From [Mycobacterium] stephanolepidis (lineage in GTDB: Bacteria > Actinomycetota > Actinomycetes > Mycobacteriales > Mycobacteriaceae), in the NCBI RefSeq assembly GCF_002356335.1, contig NZ_AP018165.1, positions 1,116,001 to 1,180,000 on the forward strand: a stretch of DNA of 64,000 nt, given 5' to 3'. Shown here piece by piece: positions 7,314 through 18,149 of this stretch. Every line of letters starts with the position of its first letter. The first letter of the stretch is position 1. The translations under genes and the position numbers were made by a program. Below the pieces are notes generated by a model. That model made no database searches, had not been told where the DNA came from, and saw only the letters and a list, made by a program, of their open reading frames with translations.

Positions 7314-7619
7314 GTGCCGAAGCCGTTTCCTGCAGAGTTCCGTGCCGATGTGGTGCGAATTGCCCGTGATCGCGATGCTGGTGTGACGTTGGAGCAGGTC
7401 GCTGCTGATTTCGGTATTCACCCGATGACGCTGTCGAAATGGATACGCCAATCCGATGTCGATGAGGGGGTTCGCCCTGGTGTGACCGCCACTGAGTCCG
7501 CCGAGAACCGCGAACTCAAGAAGCGAGTCCGGTTGCTGGAGCAGGAAAATGAGGTGTTGCGGCGGGCGGCGGCCTATTTGTCGCAGGCCAACCTCAAGCT
7601 GGGTCAGTCCCCAAAATGA
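7314..7619 (+). CDS. IS3-family transposase OrfA (helix-turn-helix)
   Basis: OrfA has about 101 residues. The helix-turn-helix region (FRADVVRIARDRDAGVT ... FGIHPMTLSKWIRQ) recognises the element ends. It is followed by a leucine-zipper segment (LKKRVRLLEQENEVLRRA) for multimerisation. GTG 7314 has GGAAGG eight bases upstream; in-frame starts at 7263 and 7275 are alternatives. The stop overlaps the ATG of orfB, and an AAAA run just before the stop is a candidate -1 slip site giving the OrfAB fusion transposase. Confidence 0.88.
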   Translation: MPKPFPAEFRADVVRIARDRDAGVTLEQVAADFGIHPMTLSKWIRQSDVDEGVRPGVTATESAENRELKKRVRLLEQENEVLRRAAAYLSQANLKLGQSPK

Positions 7620-8491
7620 TGTACCCGCTCGTTCGTGAGCTGGCCGCCGACGGTGTTCCCGTCACGGTGACGTGCCGGGTCCTCAAAATCGCTCGTCAGC
7701 CATTTTATCGCTGGTGTGCTGGCCCGGTCACTGGAACTGAGTGGGTGCAAGCGTCAGTGACGAACGCGGTCTATGACGCCCACCGTGATGACCCCGAGTT
7801 CGGCTACCGATTCCTCGCTGATGAAGTCCGGGCCGCGGGAATCGCTGTGTCTGACCGGACGGTGTGGAAACGCTGCCGCGAGAACCGCTGGTGGTCGGCA
7901 TTCGGCAAGAAACGCAGCCGTGTCGGCAAGAAACCAGGCCCACCTGTTCACAACGATCTGGTATGCCGCAATTTCACCGCAACCACCCCAAACATGTTGT
8001 GGTTGACCGATATCACCGAACACCGGACCAGCGAAGGCAAGCTCTATCTGTGCGCGATCAAGGACGTGTTCTCCAACCGCATCGTCGGCTATTCCATCAG
8101 TAACCGCATGAAAGCTGCCCTAGCGGTGACCGCGCTCAACAATGCGGTGGCCCGCCGTGGCGATGTGAGTGGGTGCATCGTCCACAGCGACCGGGGCAGC
8201 CAATTTCGGTCCCGAAAATTCGTGCATACCCTCAACCGGCACAACATGATTGGCTCCATGGGCCGGATTGGCGCCGCCGGTGATAACGCCGCGATGGAGT
8301 CCTTCTTTTCCCTGCTGCAAAAGAACGTCCTGAATCGGCGCCGATGGAACACCCGCGACGAACTACGGACAGCGATCGTGACCTGGATCGAACGCACCTA
8401 CCACCGCCGCCGACGCCAACCCGCCCTCGGCAAGTTGACCCCCATCGAATACGAGACCATCATGACCACACCGGCCAATCAGGCCGCCTAA
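7616..8491 (+). CDS. IS3-family transposase OrfB (DDE integrase core)
   Basis: OrfB has 291 residues with an rve-type DDE catalytic domain. The first Asp lies in MLWLTDITEH, the second in IVHSDRGSQF, and the Glu in AAMESFFSLLQ with the following Lys. An HTH_21-like region precedes the core. It lies in the -1 frame relative to orfA and overlaps it by 4 bases (ATGA), as in other IS3 elements. No frameshift or stop breaks it. Confidence 0.92.
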   Translation: MMYPLVRELAADGVPVTVTCRVLKIARQPFYRWCAGPVTGTEWVQASVTNAVYDAHRDDPEFGYRFLADEVRAAGIAVSDRTVWKRCRENRWWSAFGKKRSRVGKKPGPPVHNDLVCRNFTATTPNMLWLTDITEHRTSEGKLYLCAIKDVFSNRIVGYSISNRMKAALAVTALNNAVARRGDVSGCIVHSDRGSQFRSRKFVHTLNRHNMIGSMGRIGAAGDNAAMESFFSLLQKNVLNRRRWNTRDELRTAIVTWIERTYHRRRRQPALGKLTPIEYETIMTTPANQAA

Positions 8492-8495
8492 AGAC

Positions 8496-8520
8496 TGTCA
8501 CCTATCCGTGCAGCAGACCC
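8496..8520 (-). repeat. right terminal inverted repeat of the IS3 element
   Basis: Inverse complement of 7244-7268 with one mismatch. The following bases GTG (8521-8523) duplicate 7241-7243. Confidence 0.85.
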
Positions 8521-10227
8521 GTGCAGAAATTAGAGTCACGGACTGAAACGTTCAAAGGCTATGTGGACAAGCCAGGTGGCACCTACTGGGAGGGGCAGTT
8601 CGCCGAGGCGGCCCAGCAGAACGCCGGCGATGGCCTGAAAACTATTGGCTCCATTCGCGACACGATCGATGGGCTCGCTGACGAAGTCACGTCCACGGTC
8701 ACCTACAGTGTGTTGCCGCCGTTGACCGCCGCTAAGGCGATCATCAATCACGCCGAGCAGCAACAAGGTGTGACGGTCAACGATGATCTGTCCATCACCT
8801 ATACCCCACCCAGTGGTATGAGTGATGAGGCGATTGAGAAGAGCCGTCAGGCTGTGGCAACCATGGCCAAGGAACTTAAAGACAGCGCTGATAAATGGTG
8901 GGCAGCAACACAAACTGTCAAAAGCCAGATCGAGACCGGCGAAGCGAAGGTCGCGGGTGAGTTGAATCTTGCAGCCGCGACGTTCAACGTCAACAATGCC
9001 GCCGCCCAGACAAAACCTGCCGATGTTCCCAGTGCGAAAGATGCGAACTTCTACAAGGAATGGTATCCGCGGTCCAGCGCACCGGTCAGCACTGAAGCCG
9101 CAGCCGCCACCGCAGTGGACCCGAACGCACCCAAGCTTGGCCCACCCGTACCCGGCGACAAGCCGCTCCAGCCCGATCCGCGGGCGGGCAGCCTCACAGG
9201 GAACTTGGGTGCGCTGGGCATCACGGACCCGAAGAGTCCATTGGAACAGCAGCTGCGCCCGGCAGCACCGAAGCTCGACCCCAACAGTCCACAAGGCAAA
9301 GCTGCCATCGACCAGATGCGTGGATATCTGCAGAAGATCTACCCACCTGCCGAGGCAGAGCAGCGGCTTCAAGAGGCGATCAAGGGCGCTCAACAAGACC
9401 GCCCCATGGTCGCGGTGCCAGAACCTGGTCCACAAGAGCGAGTTAGGGAAACCTTCAAAGACGCCTACCGCGCTAGCTGGGACGAGGGCATCAAAGGCAT
9501 CCAAGACATGTTGGGTGCCAACGGACTTGACGATTTCAAGGACGCCTGGAAGAACACTGGCGAAGGACTACTGCACCAGTTAAACCCGATCAACAACGTC
9601 ATCGACGGAATCAACGAACTCAAAGGCGCTGTAGATAACCCGGAAGCCTTCCTCGGCCACAAATCCGCCATTGCCACCCAGATGGTTCCGGGCCTCATTC
9701 TGGGTGGCGAAGGAGCAGCTGTCAGGGCGGGGCTTCCTGCCGAAATCCTCACCGAGGGTGGAGCGCCAGCATCTGTGCTGCGGGGATGGAATCCGACTGG
9801 TGGTATGCCTTGGAAGGACTTTGAAAGCCATTTCGGGACACCAGAAGCGCGGCACTACCCGACGGAGAACAATGGTTTTCCGCCCGGCTACGTCCCAAAG
9901 TCGGCCAATCTTCCGGCAGGCACGATCATCGACAGGTTCGGCTCAGAGTGGGGCCGCTATCTTGCGCCGGACGGTACTCCTGCTTCTGGCCGAGCAATAG
10001 CGCCTGAAACAGTGGGCGGTTCATACACGCGGTACATGCTTACAGGAGAGCCCCTGCCTCCTGGTTGGGACATCGTCGAGGGGCCAGTGCAACCATGGTT
10101 TGGGCAGACTCCCTCGCCCGGCGTCCCGCAGTACATGATTGTCGGTCCCGAAGGCGTCACGCCGAAGGTCAGGGATCTACTGAAGATGGGAATAATCGAA
10201 GAGGATGGACCTCCCCTTGGACGATAA
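8521..10227 (+). pseudogene. 3' part of an IS-split TNT-domain (NAD+ glycohydrolase) type VII toxin
   Basis: Joined to 7163-7243, this restores a 594-residue protein. The N-terminus is a WXG100-like helical domain with a WEG motif (TYWEGQFAEAAQQ). A long helical and Pro-rich middle (about 60-470) follows. The C-terminal TNT domain (about 480-590) shows DRFGSEWGRYLAPDG near residue 497, SGRAIAP, and PWFGQ...PQYMI, as in the tuberculosis necrotizing toxin of CpnT, which hydrolyses NAD+. Codon use is less GC-rich than the backbone, suggesting transfer. The frame is also open 5' into the IS from ATG 8344, so a chimeric product lacking the first 27 residues is conceivable. Confidence 0.85.
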
Positions 10228-16047: not shown

Positions 16048-16485
16048 TTAGCACTGCTGCTCGGCGGCGGCATTCGTCGCCACAATTACCGCAGCTTGCC
16101 GGTCCGCGGGCAGCTCGTGCCAGGCCTTGTGAAAAGTCCCGGGGCCGACGTTCCCATTGGTCTGGATGGACTGCAGATAGCCCTCCACGAGCTGGGCGGG
16201 GCCATCCTGCTTCCCGGTCATCCAGTCGGCGGCTGCACGGCAGGCCTGGTAGTACTCCTCTTCCAGGGAACTGGGTGCGGCGTCCACGGACGTTGTGACG
16301 CCCGCCGGGGACATCCCCGAGCCGGAAGCCGGCGGCTGCGCCGCGGGCGCCTCGATCGGGGTGGTGGAGGCGCCGGCCGGGTTAGGGGCCGCCTTTTCGT
16401 CGGATTTCGACGTGCACGCCGTACCGATCAACGGGACGCAGAGGGCCATCAGGGTCGCGGCGATGCGGATTGGGGCGGTCACCAC
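16048..16485 (-). CDS. lpqV: lipoprotein LpqV-like
   Basis: This lipoprotein of about 145 residues has a signal sequence ending in LIGTAC (lipobox Cys). A Pro/Ala/Ser-rich linker (about 25-65) and a small alpha-helical domain with EEEYYQACRAAADWMTGKQ and a terminal Cys follow. Size, layout and position divergent from a cysteine dioxygenase-like and a rhodanese gene match lpqV (Rv1064c) beside Rv1065-Rv1066. Function unknown. GTG 16485 or 16482 is the likely start. Confidence 0.7.
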   Translation of the reverse strand: MVTAPIRIAATLMALCVPLIGTACTSKSDEKAAPNPAGASTTPIEAPAAQPPASGSGMSPAGVTTSVDAAPSSLEEEYYQACRAAADWMTGKQDGPAQLVEGYLQSIQTNGNVGPGTFHKAWHELPADRQAAVIVATNAAAEQQC

Positions 16486-16533
16486 TCCAAAGTAGCAAGT
16501 GCCTACCAGCGGCAACATTTACTCACTCAGAGC

Positions 16534-16552
16534 TTTTGCCCTGGGGGCAAAA
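16534..16552. promoter_or_regulatory. perfect 8-bp inverted repeat in the lpqV / dioxygenase divergent promoter
   Basis: TTTTGCCC and GGGCAAAA are separated by TGG. The repeat lies about 20 bases upstream of the -10 element TACCAT (16570-16575) of the dioxygenase leader, so it overlaps the expected -35 region. A repressor-type operator is likely; the regulator is unknown. Confidence 0.45.
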
Positions 16553-16569
16553 CCGCTGGAAAACGCCGG

Positions 16570-16575
16570 TACCAT
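16570..16575 (+). promoter_or_regulatory. -10 element for the leaderless leader transcript
   Basis: TACCAT is followed by seven bases and then the GTG of the leader peptide at 16583. Transcription would start at or within a base of the start codon, giving a leaderless mRNA as is common in mycobacteria. Confidence 0.5.
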
Positions 16576-16582
16576 TTCAGCT

Positions 16583-16624
16583 GTGATGGGACACAGGGGT
16601 TTTCAGGGGTGGTGTTGCGGCTAG
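16583..16624 (+). CDS. leader peptide with tandem Cys codons (probable cysteine attenuator)
   Basis: GTG-ATG starts a 13-codon frame, V-M-G-H-R-G-F-Q-G-W-C-C-G, followed by TAG. It is placed at the predicted transcription start, so it is probably translated from a leaderless mRNA. Two adjacent Cys codons (TGT TGC) lie just before the stop. Polycysteine leaderless short frames acting as cysteine-responsive attenuators are known in mycobacteria. The downstream genes encode a cysteine dioxygenase-like protein and a rhodanese, which fits. Translation itself is not proven by the sequence. Confidence 0.65.
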   Translation: MMGHRGFQGWCCG

Positions 16625-16639
16625 CCGCCACCATCCCTG
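16604..16639 (+). promoter_or_regulatory. attenuator hairpin overlapping the leader's Cys codons
   Basis: CAGGGGTGGTG (16604-16614) pairs over 11 bases (one G-T) with CACCATCCCTG (16629-16639). After a TT bulge, GCGG pairs with CCGC around a CTAG loop. The 5' arm contains the Trp codon and the Cys codons start in its bulge. A ribosome stalled there would open the stem. The hairpin ends 24 bases before the dioxygenase start codon. Confidence 0.6.
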
Positions 16640-16663
16640 CCCCTGCCATCGATTTGAGCCTTC

Positions 16664-17224
16664 ATGACCACTGCATCTGTCCTGGATCTGCGCCGCCCTG
16701 CCTCCGCCGGATCCTCTCCCACTCGCCTGCGACTGCCGGATCTGCTCCGTATCACCGATGAGGGCGCCGACGACGCGCTGCACGGCCGCTTCGACCATCT
16801 GCTGCCCGAGGGCGGGCTTCCTGTCGACGAGCGCTGGGCCACCCGCATTCACGCCGACGACGAGCTCGATGTCTGGCTGATCAGCTGGGTGCCCGACAAA
16901 TCCACCGAGCTGCACGACCACTGCGGTTCGCTCGGCGCACTGACCGTGCTCAACGGCTCTCTGCATGAATATCGCTGGGATGGAAGCCAACTGGTGCGCC
17001 GTCGGCTCGACGCGGGGGATCAGGCCGGATTCCCGCTGGGCTGGGTGCACGATGTGATGCGTGCACCTGAGGCGCCCGTGCGCATCGCCACCGGACCCAC
17101 GCTGAGCGTGCACGCGTACTCGCCGCCGCTGACCGCTATGTCGTATTACGAAGTGACCCAGGCCAAGACGTTGCGACGCAGCCGCACCATCCTCACCGAC
17201 GAGCCCGAAGGACCGGCGGCATGA
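16664..17224 (+). CDS. cysteine dioxygenase-like cupin protein (Rv1065 homologue)
   Basis: This 186-residue cupin has the metal-binding HDH motif at residues 84-86 (STELHDHCGSLGALTVLNG) and a C-terminal VHAYSPPL segment. That segment carries the third His and the catalytic Tyr typical of type I cysteine dioxygenases. The predicted reaction is oxidation of L-cysteine, or a related thiol, to the sulfinate with Fe(II). The stop overlaps the rhodanese start by 4 bases. The leader peptide with tandem Cys codons upstream supports a role in cysteine disposal. Confidence 0.82.
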   Translation: MTTASVLDLRRPASAGSSPTRLRLPDLLRITDEGADDALHGRFDHLLPEGGLPVDERWATRIHADDELDVWLISWVPDKSTELHDHCGSLGALTVLNGSLHEYRWDGSQLVRRRLDAGDQAGFPLGWVHDVMRAPEAPVRIATGPTLSVHAYSPPLTAMSYYEVTQAKTLRRSRTILTDEPEGPAA

Positions 17225-17589
17225 CGGTGCACGATCTGCTGGCCACGGCGCGTGGTCGGCTGCGGCGCCTGCCCGCCGACGAAGTCCCCACCGCGCTGGG
17301 CCGCGGCGCGTTCCTGGTGGACATTCGCCCCGCCGCGCAACGTGCGCAAGAGGGTGAAGTGATCAATGCCTTCGTCATCGAACGCAACGTCCTGGAATGG
17401 CGGCTGGACCCCGAAAGTGACGCCCGCATCCCTGAGGCGGGCAATCACGACATCGAATGGGTCATCCTGTGCCAAGAGGGCTACACCTCCAGCCTGGCCG
17501 CGGCCTCGCTGCAGGAGATCGGCCTGTACCGGGCCACCGATGTCATCGGGGGATACAAGGCCCTCAAGGACAAGGGCATCCTGATCTAG
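17221..17589 (+). CDS. rhodanese-like sulfurtransferase (Rv1066 homologue)
   Basis: This 122-residue single rhodanese domain has FLVDIRPAAQRAQEG near residues 30-45 and the active-site loop ILCQEGYTSSLAAASL with Cys84 as the predicted persulfide residue. It overlaps the dioxygenase gene by 4 bases (ATGA). The two probably handle excess cysteine sulfur, either passing on or detoxifying sulfane sulfur. No signal peptide is present, so it should be cytoplasmic. Confidence 0.88.
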   Translation: MTVHDLLATARGRLRRLPADEVPTALGRGAFLVDIRPAAQRAQEGEVINAFVIERNVLEWRLDPESDARIPEAGNHDIEWVILCQEGYTSSLAAASLQEIGLYRATDVIGGYKALKDKGILI

Positions 17590-17651: not shown

Positions 17652-18149
17652 TTAACCGAAGTCGCCCGCGTCGCGCCGCAGGTGCGTCAGCACCGACACC
17701 AGCGAGCGGGTGCGTGAGGGTGACAGCCCGATCTGTGCGAACACCTTGGCGTTCAGGTCGGTGGTCGCCGCCGAACCGAGATCGCGTCCGGCATCGGTAA
17801 TCTCCACCAGCGTTCCGCGTCCGTCGGCGGGGTTGGGCACCCGGCGCACCAGCCCCGCCTCCTCCAGCCGGTCCACCGTATTGGTCACCGAGGTCGGGTG
17901 AACCTGAAGTCGCGCACTGGCTTTGGCCATCGGCATGGAGCCGGCCCGGCTGAACGACAGCAGCATCAGCAGCTCGTAGCGCGAGAAGGTCAAGCCGTGC
18001 GGGCGCAACACATCTTCGACCCGCGCCAGCATGATCTGGTGGGCACGCATCACCGACGTGACGGCGGCCATCCCGTCGGCGACCTCACCCCAGCCGTTCT
18101 CAACCCAATGGCGATGGGCATCGTCGACGGGATCGAACGGCAGAGTCAT
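17652..18149 (-). CDS. MarR-family transcriptional regulator
   Basis: This 165-residue regulator has a winged helix-turn-helix: LTFSRYELLMLLSFSRAG, then MAKASARLQVHPTSVTNTVDRLEEAGLVRRVPNPADGRGTLVEITDAG. Both helices for dimerisation are present. It lies only 15 bases downstream of echA8 on the same strand, so it is probably the last gene of the valine-degradation operon. It is a good candidate to bind the tandem palindromes upstream of mmsA. The ligand may be an acyl-CoA or branched acid; that is inference. Confidence 0.88.
   Translation of the reverse strand: MTLPFDPVDDAHRHWVENGWGEVADGMAAVTSVMRAHQIMLARVEDVLRPHGLTFSRYELLMLLSFSRAGSMPMAKASARLQVHPTSVTNTVDRLEEAGLVRRVPNPADGRGTLVEITDAGRDLGSAATTDLNAKVFAQIGLSPSRTRSLVSVLTHLRRDAGDFG

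What the first reader, a model, noticed from the sequence alone, without database searches (positions are those of the whole stretch)
16583..16663. Leaderless Cys-Cys leader peptide and hairpin before a cysteine dioxygenase-rhodanese operon
TACCAT lies seven bases before GTG 16583. The 13-codon frame ends W-C-C-G-stop, and its 3' half forms the 5' arm of a 15-bp hairpin ending 24 bases before the dioxygenase ATG. This fits cysteine-responsive attenuators known from mycobacteria. Those described control sulfur acquisition genes; control of a cysteine-degrading operon would need the opposite or a modified logic, which makes this one worth testing.
Basis: partly seen in the sequence, partly recalled or inferred. 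Interest (0 to 1): 0.8.

Follow-up and report, generated by a model that had tools for sequence, protein, structure and literature searches.

The report
Cysteine-sensing leader before thiol-dioxygenase operon
A tiny gene ending in two cysteine codons sits in front of a sulfur-compound-oxidising operon in this mycobacterium and in many related bacteria, and it most likely switches the operon on when cysteine runs short, hinting that the operon releases sulfur rather than disposing of cysteine.

Summary
In detail: TACCAT, 7 nt, then GTG 16583; 13 codons ending W-C-C-G-stop (TAG 16622-16624); a 15-bp stem ending 24 nt before the dioxygenase ATG. It is real. A Cys-Cys leader precedes the orthologous dioxygenase in 111 of 111 sequences chosen by the protein alone (95 distinct; Mycobacterium sensu lato, Rhodococcus, Nocardia), and in 59 of 70 loci of a family sample (16 of 21 genera read). 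Outside Mycobacterium the leader RNA pairs with the dioxygenase start codon, with compensatory changes. A ribosome parked on the Cys codons would free it (73 leaders: relief 8.7 kcal/mol; shuffled leaders 1.3). That is ordinary starvation-ON logic; I found no support for reversed logic. In Mycobacterium, and in this window, the RNA is built differently and the same calculation is only suggestive (20 of 200 shuffles do as well). The puzzle may lie in the enzyme: its closest solved relative is an actinobacterial ergothioneine dioxygenase, it is nearly cysteine-free, and a cysteine dioxygenase rises under sulfur limitation in Gordonia (PMC7661421). A sulfur-salvage role is plausible, unproven. 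It is a new member of a known kind; I could not read the 2020 paper that may already list this locus.

The parts
16570..16575 (+). -10 element TACCAT, 7 nt before the leader GTG (predicted leaderless start at 16583)
   Evidence: Across 149 leaders an xAxxxT hexamer stands at a 7-nt gap in 132, at 6 nt in 17, at 8-11 nt in 0 (leaders were partly chosen by a -10 at gap 6-7, so this is not independent).
16583..16624 (+). leader short ORF VMGHRGFQGWCCG plus TAG stop
   Evidence: a Cys-Cys short ORF in 111 of 111 sequences, 95 distinct.
16613..16618 (+). regulatory Cys-Cys codons TGT TGC (codons 11-12)
   Evidence: first Cys of the last pair lies 4 codons before the stop in 131 of 149 leaders, 3 in 9, 2 in 5, 5 in 4. 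In the window it is 3.
16604..16639 (+). inner 15-bp hairpin; 5' arm = leader codons 8-13, stop codon in the loop
   Evidence: 26 consensus pairs over 6 sequences, none with both sides changed.
16584..16651 (+). full three-tier stem (outer 16584-16589/16646-16651, middle 16594-16599/16640-16645)
   Evidence: minimum free energy fold.
16656..16658 (+). weak Shine-Dalgarno-like GAG; most relatives have GGAG or GAAAG here
16664..17224 (+). thiol dioxygenase of the cysteine dioxygenase family (186 aa, 1 Cys)
   Evidence: PF05995 E 5.7e-9; closest PDB chains 8qfl-8qfr.
17221..17589 (+). rhodanese-domain protein, start overlaps the dioxygenase stop (ATGA)
   Evidence: PF00581 E 1.1e-7; same strand within 80 nt in 193 of 198 loci.

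Best explanation
It is a leaderless, ribosome-mediated, cysteine-responsive attenuator of the thiol dioxygenase-rhodanese operon, with starvation-ON logic. Transcription starts at GTG 16583 and ribosomes start there. With enough Cys-tRNA they run to the stop and leave, and the leader RNA refolds; in most non-mycobacterial relatives this refolded RNA hides the start codon of the dioxygenase, in the window it folds into the long stem whose base abuts the ribosome landing site. With too little Cys-tRNA the ribosome waits on the Cys codons, covers the 5' arm (about 16596-16625 in the model used), the stem cannot form, and the dioxygenase start is open. Shown: sequence anatomy, conservation, base-pair covariation outside Mycobacterium. 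Inferred: transcription start, stalling, polarity in vivo, and that the chelonae-group stem does the same job as the start-codon helix of the relatives.
For: Conservation: 111 of 111 sequences picked by protein similarity carry a Cys-Cys leader, 95 of them distinct; in the genus sample 45 of 48 genomes have the dioxygenase, 44 could be read and 44 have the leader; 59 of 70 loci of the family sample, plus 3 with a one-Cys leader. Structure: in 39 aligned non-mycobacterial leaders, codons 4-6 pair with the dioxygenase start codon; with the stop-codon hairpin, 99.3% of cells are paired and 17 cells changed on both sides against 3.6 in shuffles (0 of 500), slid controls 30-51% paired; one pair follows the start codon from ATG to GTG (U-A 22, U-G 13, C-G 4). 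Energetics: 73 non-mycobacterial leaders (68 distinct), relief on stalling 8.7 kcal/mol against 1.3 for shuffled leaders, 72 of 73 above their null mean. Chelonae group: 13.6 free, 7.5 stalled, 7 of 7 easier; window 13.0 to 6.2. A covariance model of the non-mycobacterial element finds one place per genome in 10 of 14 genomes, each just upstream of the dioxygenase, including one Mycobacterium, E 0.002. Polarity: in Gordonia a cysteine dioxygenase and four sulfurtransferases rise on organosulfonates versus sulfate (PMC7661421, abstract and passages). The dioxygenases average 0.14% Cys, none in 109 of 149, against 1.05% in window ORFs.
Against: In Mycobacterium the first test, opening Shine-Dalgarno to start+1 codon, showed no gain on stalling (69 leaders: free 7.1, stalled 7.3; chelonae 3.2 and 3.7). 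The wider site (-20 to +15) was chosen after that; with a matched null it is not significant in Mycobacterium (2.5 vs 1.95 kcal/mol, 269 of 690 shuffles as large) and weak in the window (20 of 200). The same kind of test on 13 nirA leaders, a published Cys-leader type, also shows nothing (1 of 13 easier by more than 1), so it has little power there. In one search two other measures do not favour the structure as clearly: pairs with both-sided change 3 against 1.4 (29 of 500 shuffles), further pair types 9 against 10.1 (495 of 500). The Gordonia data are transcripts, the passages do not show that the gene is this one, and the three leaders of genus g42, which I guess to be Gordonia, have one Cys codon. 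The covariance model does not find the window's nearest genome G001.
Confidence: 0.62

Rival explanations
1. Reversed logic: high cysteine turns the operon on. Free passage to the stop codon would keep the ribosome on the post-stop arm and expose the start, while stalling upstream would let another pairing close it.
For: A cysteine-degrading enzyme would be wanted at high cysteine. In some mycobacterial leaders the stalled state is harder to open by more than 1 kcal/mol at the narrow site (6 of 11 MTER, 9 of 35 other, 6 of 23 MERFG, 1 of 7 chelonae; easier in 3, 4, 7 and 0).
Against: The post-stop segment does not pair with the Shine-Dalgarno better than foreign ones. In non-mycobacterial relatives stalling opens more than a ribosome at the stop codon (7.5 vs 9.6, free 14.2 kcal/mol). 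Sulfur limitation raises a cysteine dioxygenase in Gordonia.
Confidence: 0.12
2. Transcription attenuation: the stem acts as a terminator or pause/Rho signal, and the stalled ribosome prevents it. Output is again starvation-ON.
For: In the chelonae group and many other mycobacterial folds the stem uses the post-stop arm, not the Shine-Dalgarno; Rho was suggested for Cys leaders in 2005 (PMC1262725, abstract and passages).
Against: No terminator-like site at the leader: the one hit in 16300-17000 is at 16374-16391, and no U-run follows the stem. Rho cannot be tested here.
Confidence: 0.18
3. Constitutive coupling: leader translation opens the start whatever the cysteine level, and the Cys codons are kept for another reason (RNA structure or the peptide).
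For: GGAGTGTTGTCG is invariant across 39 non-mycobacterial leaders, and TGT is used 299 times against 75 TGC in the 149 leaders, which speaks for a nucleotide constraint. In the non-mycobacterial set a ribosome at many upstream codons opens the site as well as one on the Cys codons.
Against: In the chelonae group the Cys pair shifts between WCCG, CCRG and CCCG, and the one-Cys leaders keep a Cys three codons before the stop. Cys leaders also stand before cysA2 and nirA (PMC4633059, passages).
Confidence: 0.08

Closest known systems
Leaderless polycysteine short-ORF attenuators of mycobacteria (Shell 2015 PMC4633059; Canestrari 2020, recalled)
   Same: Leaderless short ORF, Cys codons just before the stop, conserved position before sulfur genes. 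Shell 2015 shows cysA2, Rv0485 and nirA (passages and figure legend).
   Different: Target is a thiol dioxygenase-rhodanese operon; the leader is mostly 11-15 codons with usually one Cys pair; found here in 16 of 21 genera read outside Mycobacterium, where the start codon itself is in the helix.
Cys leader peptides predicted upstream of cys operons in Actinobacteria (2005, PMC1262725)
   Same: Short ORFs with Cys runs near the stop, no terminator.
   Different: Other target genes; no conserved hairpin was found there, and no dioxygenase is mentioned in the text (term search and passages).
uORFC-8-2 motif upstream of cysS in proteobacteria (PMC8632094)
   Same: Tandem Cys codons in a stem, presumed starvation-ON read-through.
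   Different: Intrinsic terminator, other phylum (passages).
Ergothioneine dioxygenase, Thermocatellispora tengchongensis (PDB 8qfl-8qfr)
   Same: Closest solved relative of the gene product by sequence (E 3e-14) and by fold (E 1e-11, TM 0.75 by target, 0.63 by query).
   Different: About 25% identity; substrate of the window enzyme unknown; partner gene here is a rhodanese.

Membership tests
Leaderless polycysteine attenuator | Start codon at the 5' end of the mRNA | tested here: inconclusive
   -10 at 7 nt, conserved; no mapped start.
Leaderless polycysteine attenuator | Consecutive Cys codons close to the stop | tested here: met
   111 of 111 sequences, 95 distinct; position.
Leaderless polycysteine attenuator | Precedes a sulfur/cysteine operon, conserved | tested here: met
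   Rhodanese follows the dioxygenase in 193 of 198 loci.
Leaderless polycysteine attenuator | RNA structure hides the ribosome-binding site and a ribosome on the Cys codons frees it | tested here: inconclusive
   Met outside Mycobacterium (72 of 73; covariation); only suggestive in the window (20 of 200) and not significant in 69 other mycobacterial leaders.
Leaderless polycysteine attenuator | Expression rises on cysteine limitation, lost when Cys codons are changed | not testable with these tools
   Needs reporters. Indirect: Gordonia transcriptome.
Classical terminator attenuator | GC-rich stem followed by a U-run between leader and gene | tested here: not met
Known Rfam RNA family | Match at gathering score | tested here: not met
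   Only two tRNAs in the window.
Ergothioneine dioxygenase (gene product) | Closest to that enzyme in sequence and fold among solved structures | tested here: met
   (model mean pLDDT 75).
Ergothioneine dioxygenase (gene product) | Acts on ergothioneine | not testable with these tools
   No assay. Co-occurrence with EgtD: 115 of 128 dioxygenase-bearing family genomes; the 13 exceptions are all genus g53, whose 11 loci read have no leader.
Cysteine dioxygenase (gene product) | Three iron His and Ser-His-Tyr triad | tested here: met
   H84, H86, H129 and S148, H150, Y152 invariant in 12 sequences; their catalytic roles are recalled. The substrate-binding Arg could not be aligned with confidence.

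The most novel reading that the evidence does not exclude
A family-wide cysteine-starvation switch opens a sulfur store: when Cys-tRNA runs short, ribosomes stalled on the leader turn on a thiol dioxygenase (acting on ergothioneine or a like stored thiol, not on cysteine) and its rhodanese, releasing sulfite or thiosulfate for renewed cysteine synthesis. This would explain the polarity, the cysteine-poor enzyme, and its association with ergothioneine makers.
Probability: 0.27. Interest if true: 0.82.

Novelty: new member of a known kind. Interest (0 to 1): 0.6.

Why it matters
It extends ribosome-sensed cysteine control from mycobacteria to Rhodococcus, Nocardia and further genera, gives a covariation-backed structure in which the start codon itself is hidden, and turns the function of a little-studied operon into a testable question: if starvation turns it on, calling it cysteine-degrading is probably wrong. 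It also offers a natural contrast, one genus with a fused dioxygenase-rhodanese gene and no leader.

Tried and rejected
Reversed logic by a post-stop/Shine-Dalgarno helix: looked for, not found. Intrinsic terminator: none at the leader. Opening of the Shine-Dalgarno alone in Mycobacterium: no effect. nirA leaders as positive control: no effect either (a first script, missed the gene). A loose pattern hit all 297 genomes at noise level and was dropped. Mapping the Arg of Arg-type cysteine dioxygenases: alignment starts too late, left open. Passages read without gain: PMC11133741, PMC12071650 and PMC10903977. Rows dropped: 80 of 360 relatives were kept by the tool; 5 of 111 sequences as duplicates (the stricter recount gives 95 distinct); six loci for which the script found no anchor or start (L008, L023, L027, L051, L083, L085) and 9 identical sequences, although one search shows their leaders; L183 and leaders without a -10; 7 of 46 references left out of alignment A2.

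Full report
What is there. The window holds, on the + strand, a -10 hexamer TACCAT (16570-16575), 7 nt, and a 13-codon frame from GTG 16583 to TAG 16622-16624 (VMGHRGFQGWCCG). A 15-bp stem with a UU bulge in the Cys codons and the stop codon in its loop ends 24 nt before ATG 16664; the full predicted stem runs 16584-16651. The ATG opens a 186-aa protein of the cysteine dioxygenase family (PF05995), overlapped by ATGA with a rhodanese-domain protein; LpqV lies divergently upstream. No Rfam family matches the leader. Close named relatives are Mycobacteroides of the chelonae group (L032 M. chelonae, 94% protein identity); the window's own assembly is not held.

Conservation. Loci were gathered by dioxygenase similarity only. 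They include records named Mycobacterium, Mycolicibacterium, Mycobacteroides, Rhodococcus, Rhodococcoides and Nocardia. In the first sample 45 of 48 genomes of the genus have the dioxygenase; 44 could be read and 44 have the leader (one lies at a contig edge). In the family sample the dioxygenase is in 128 of 201 genomes, 22 of 31 genera. I first fetched 70 loci of the 113 such genomes outside the genus: 59 have a Cys-Cys leader (57; L204 and L209), 3 a one-Cys leader, 8 none that I could find; 16 of the 21 genera read have the Cys-Cys form. At least two of the 70 repeat leaders already counted (L165, L185). Genus g53 accounts for 3 of the 8; eight more g53 loci also have none, so 0 of 11. In 10 of these 11 the dioxygenase open frame is 306-313 aa; one checked (L241) holds both a dioxygenase and a rhodanese domain, and most start at an ATG seven nt after a -10-like hexamer (L210, 204 aa, is the exception in length). 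In other families of the order, two of ten loci (L231, L236) have longer leaders ending DECCR or DECCP. The leader consensus ends ECCRx-stop; the last Cys pair begins 4 codons before the stop in 131 of 149 leaders (143 distinct). The rhodanese follows within 80 nt in 193 of 198 loci; four of the other five end within 90 nt of the dioxygenase match and have no room for it.

Structure and logic. In 39 non-mycobacterial leaders of like length (36 distinct), two helices are supported: a hairpin around the stop codon, and leader codons 4-6 with the dioxygenase start codon; 99.3% of cells pair, 17 cells are changed on both sides (shuffles 3.6, 0 of 500), and slid registers pair at 30-51%; but pairs with both-sided change are 3 against 1.4 (29 of 500) and further pair types 9 against 10.1 (495 of 500). 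Where the start codon is GTG the partner base can change with it. The cost of opening Shine-Dalgarno through start+1 codon is 14.2 kcal/mol free, 7.5 with a ribosome on the Cys codons, 9.6 with one on the stop, 8.2 for shuffled leaders (53 leaders; 47 easier by more than 1, 2 harder). Moving a model ribosome codon by codon, the site is open from several codons upstream up to the Cys codons and begins to close beyond them. This is starvation-ON.

Mycobacterium, and the window, are built differently. The leader pairs mainly with the post-stop segment; the Shine-Dalgarno alone is no easier to reach on stalling. With the whole landing site (-20 to +15), a choice made after the first result, stalling helps: window 13.0 to 6.2, chelonae group 13.6 to 7.5 (7 of 7), other mycobacteria 53 of 69 easier by more than 1 and 3 harder. 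A matched null removes most of that: window 6.8 against 3.4 (sd 2.5), 20 of 200 shuffles as large; chelonae 6.0 against 3.8 (15 of 70); other mycobacteria 2.5 against 1.95 (269 of 690); non-mycobacterial 8.7 against 1.3 (33 of 730). Thirteen nirA leaders show nothing in the narrow-site test. In 52 mycobacterial 13-codon leaders a consensus fold keeps part of the stop-codon hairpin, one of its pairs with 24 both-sided changes, and pairs the first codons with the Shine-Dalgarno region. In the chelonae group 0 of 26 consensus pairs have changes on both sides. So conservation of the device is firm; its second step in this window is inferred from relatives.

A covariance model from the non-mycobacterial leaders finds one place each in 10 of 14 genomes searched, each at the dioxygenase leader, including one Mycobacterium (E 0.002); 4 genomes, among them the window's nearest relative G001, gave none.

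The gene product. The closest solved structures by sequence are 8qfl-8qfr (3e-14), ahead of B. subtilis (1.6e-8) and type 1 cysteine dioxygenases (4e-6 and weaker). The PDB chain name is cysteine dioxygenase, but the entry titles read ergothioneine dioxygenase from Thermocatellispora; the fold search ranks them 1-13. Nearness may reflect actinobacterial descent only. EgtD is present in 115 of the 128 dioxygenase-bearing genomes and in 49 of 73 without; all 13 exceptions are in g53. Since g53 is one genus, this may be one event, not a statistical proof; one g53 genome with EgtD (G468, L239) has no leader either. The dioxygenases are nearly free of cysteine, as expected of proteins made when sulfur is short, and in Gordonia a cysteine dioxygenase and four sulfurtransferases are among the genes raised when organosulfonates replace sulfate (PMC7661421, abstract and passages). 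Together these favour a sulfur-supply role over cysteine disposal; the substrate is unknown.

Placement. It works like, and in the sequence features tested resembles, the leaderless polycysteine attenuators of mycobacteria (Shell 2015, passages; Canestrari 2020, recalled; cited in PMC9094748 and PMC13236596, passages). Membership by response to cysteine is untested. The Shell 2015 passages name cysA2, Rv0485 and nirA only; whether the dioxygenase is among the later six loci I could not see.

Noticed in passing
L184, L195, L239-L246 (genus g53): Dioxygenase open frames of 306-313 aa; L241 holds dioxygenase and rhodanese domains in one frame. Most start seven nt after a -10-like hexamer; no Cys leader.
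   Followed up: partly
L177, L191, L199 (genus g42): Leader kept with a single Cys codon (RRCRS, GRCRG, RRCHG before the stop).
   Followed up: partly
L231, L236, also L232 and L234 (other families of the order): Longer leaders ending DECCR or DECCP; in L232/L234 a frame ending GC-M/R-CG-stop was seen by eye only.
   Followed up: partly
149 leaders: Cys codons are TGT 299 times and TGC 75 times; GGAGTGTTGTCG is invariant in 39 leaders and contains a Shine-Dalgarno-like GGAG.
   Followed up: no
L111-L140, nirA loci: nirA leaders share a conserved peptide like VARRHIDLKRVCSCCCLP, about 30 codons, with a much longer post-stop region.
   Followed up: partly
window 7616-8491 (+) and 8344-10227 (+): A transposase-like ORF overlaps the start of a long ORF, as if an insertion sequence had landed at its 5' side; judged by eye, not searched.
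   Followed up: no
window 17652-18149 (-): MarR-family regulator gene converging on the operon's 3' end.
   Followed up: no
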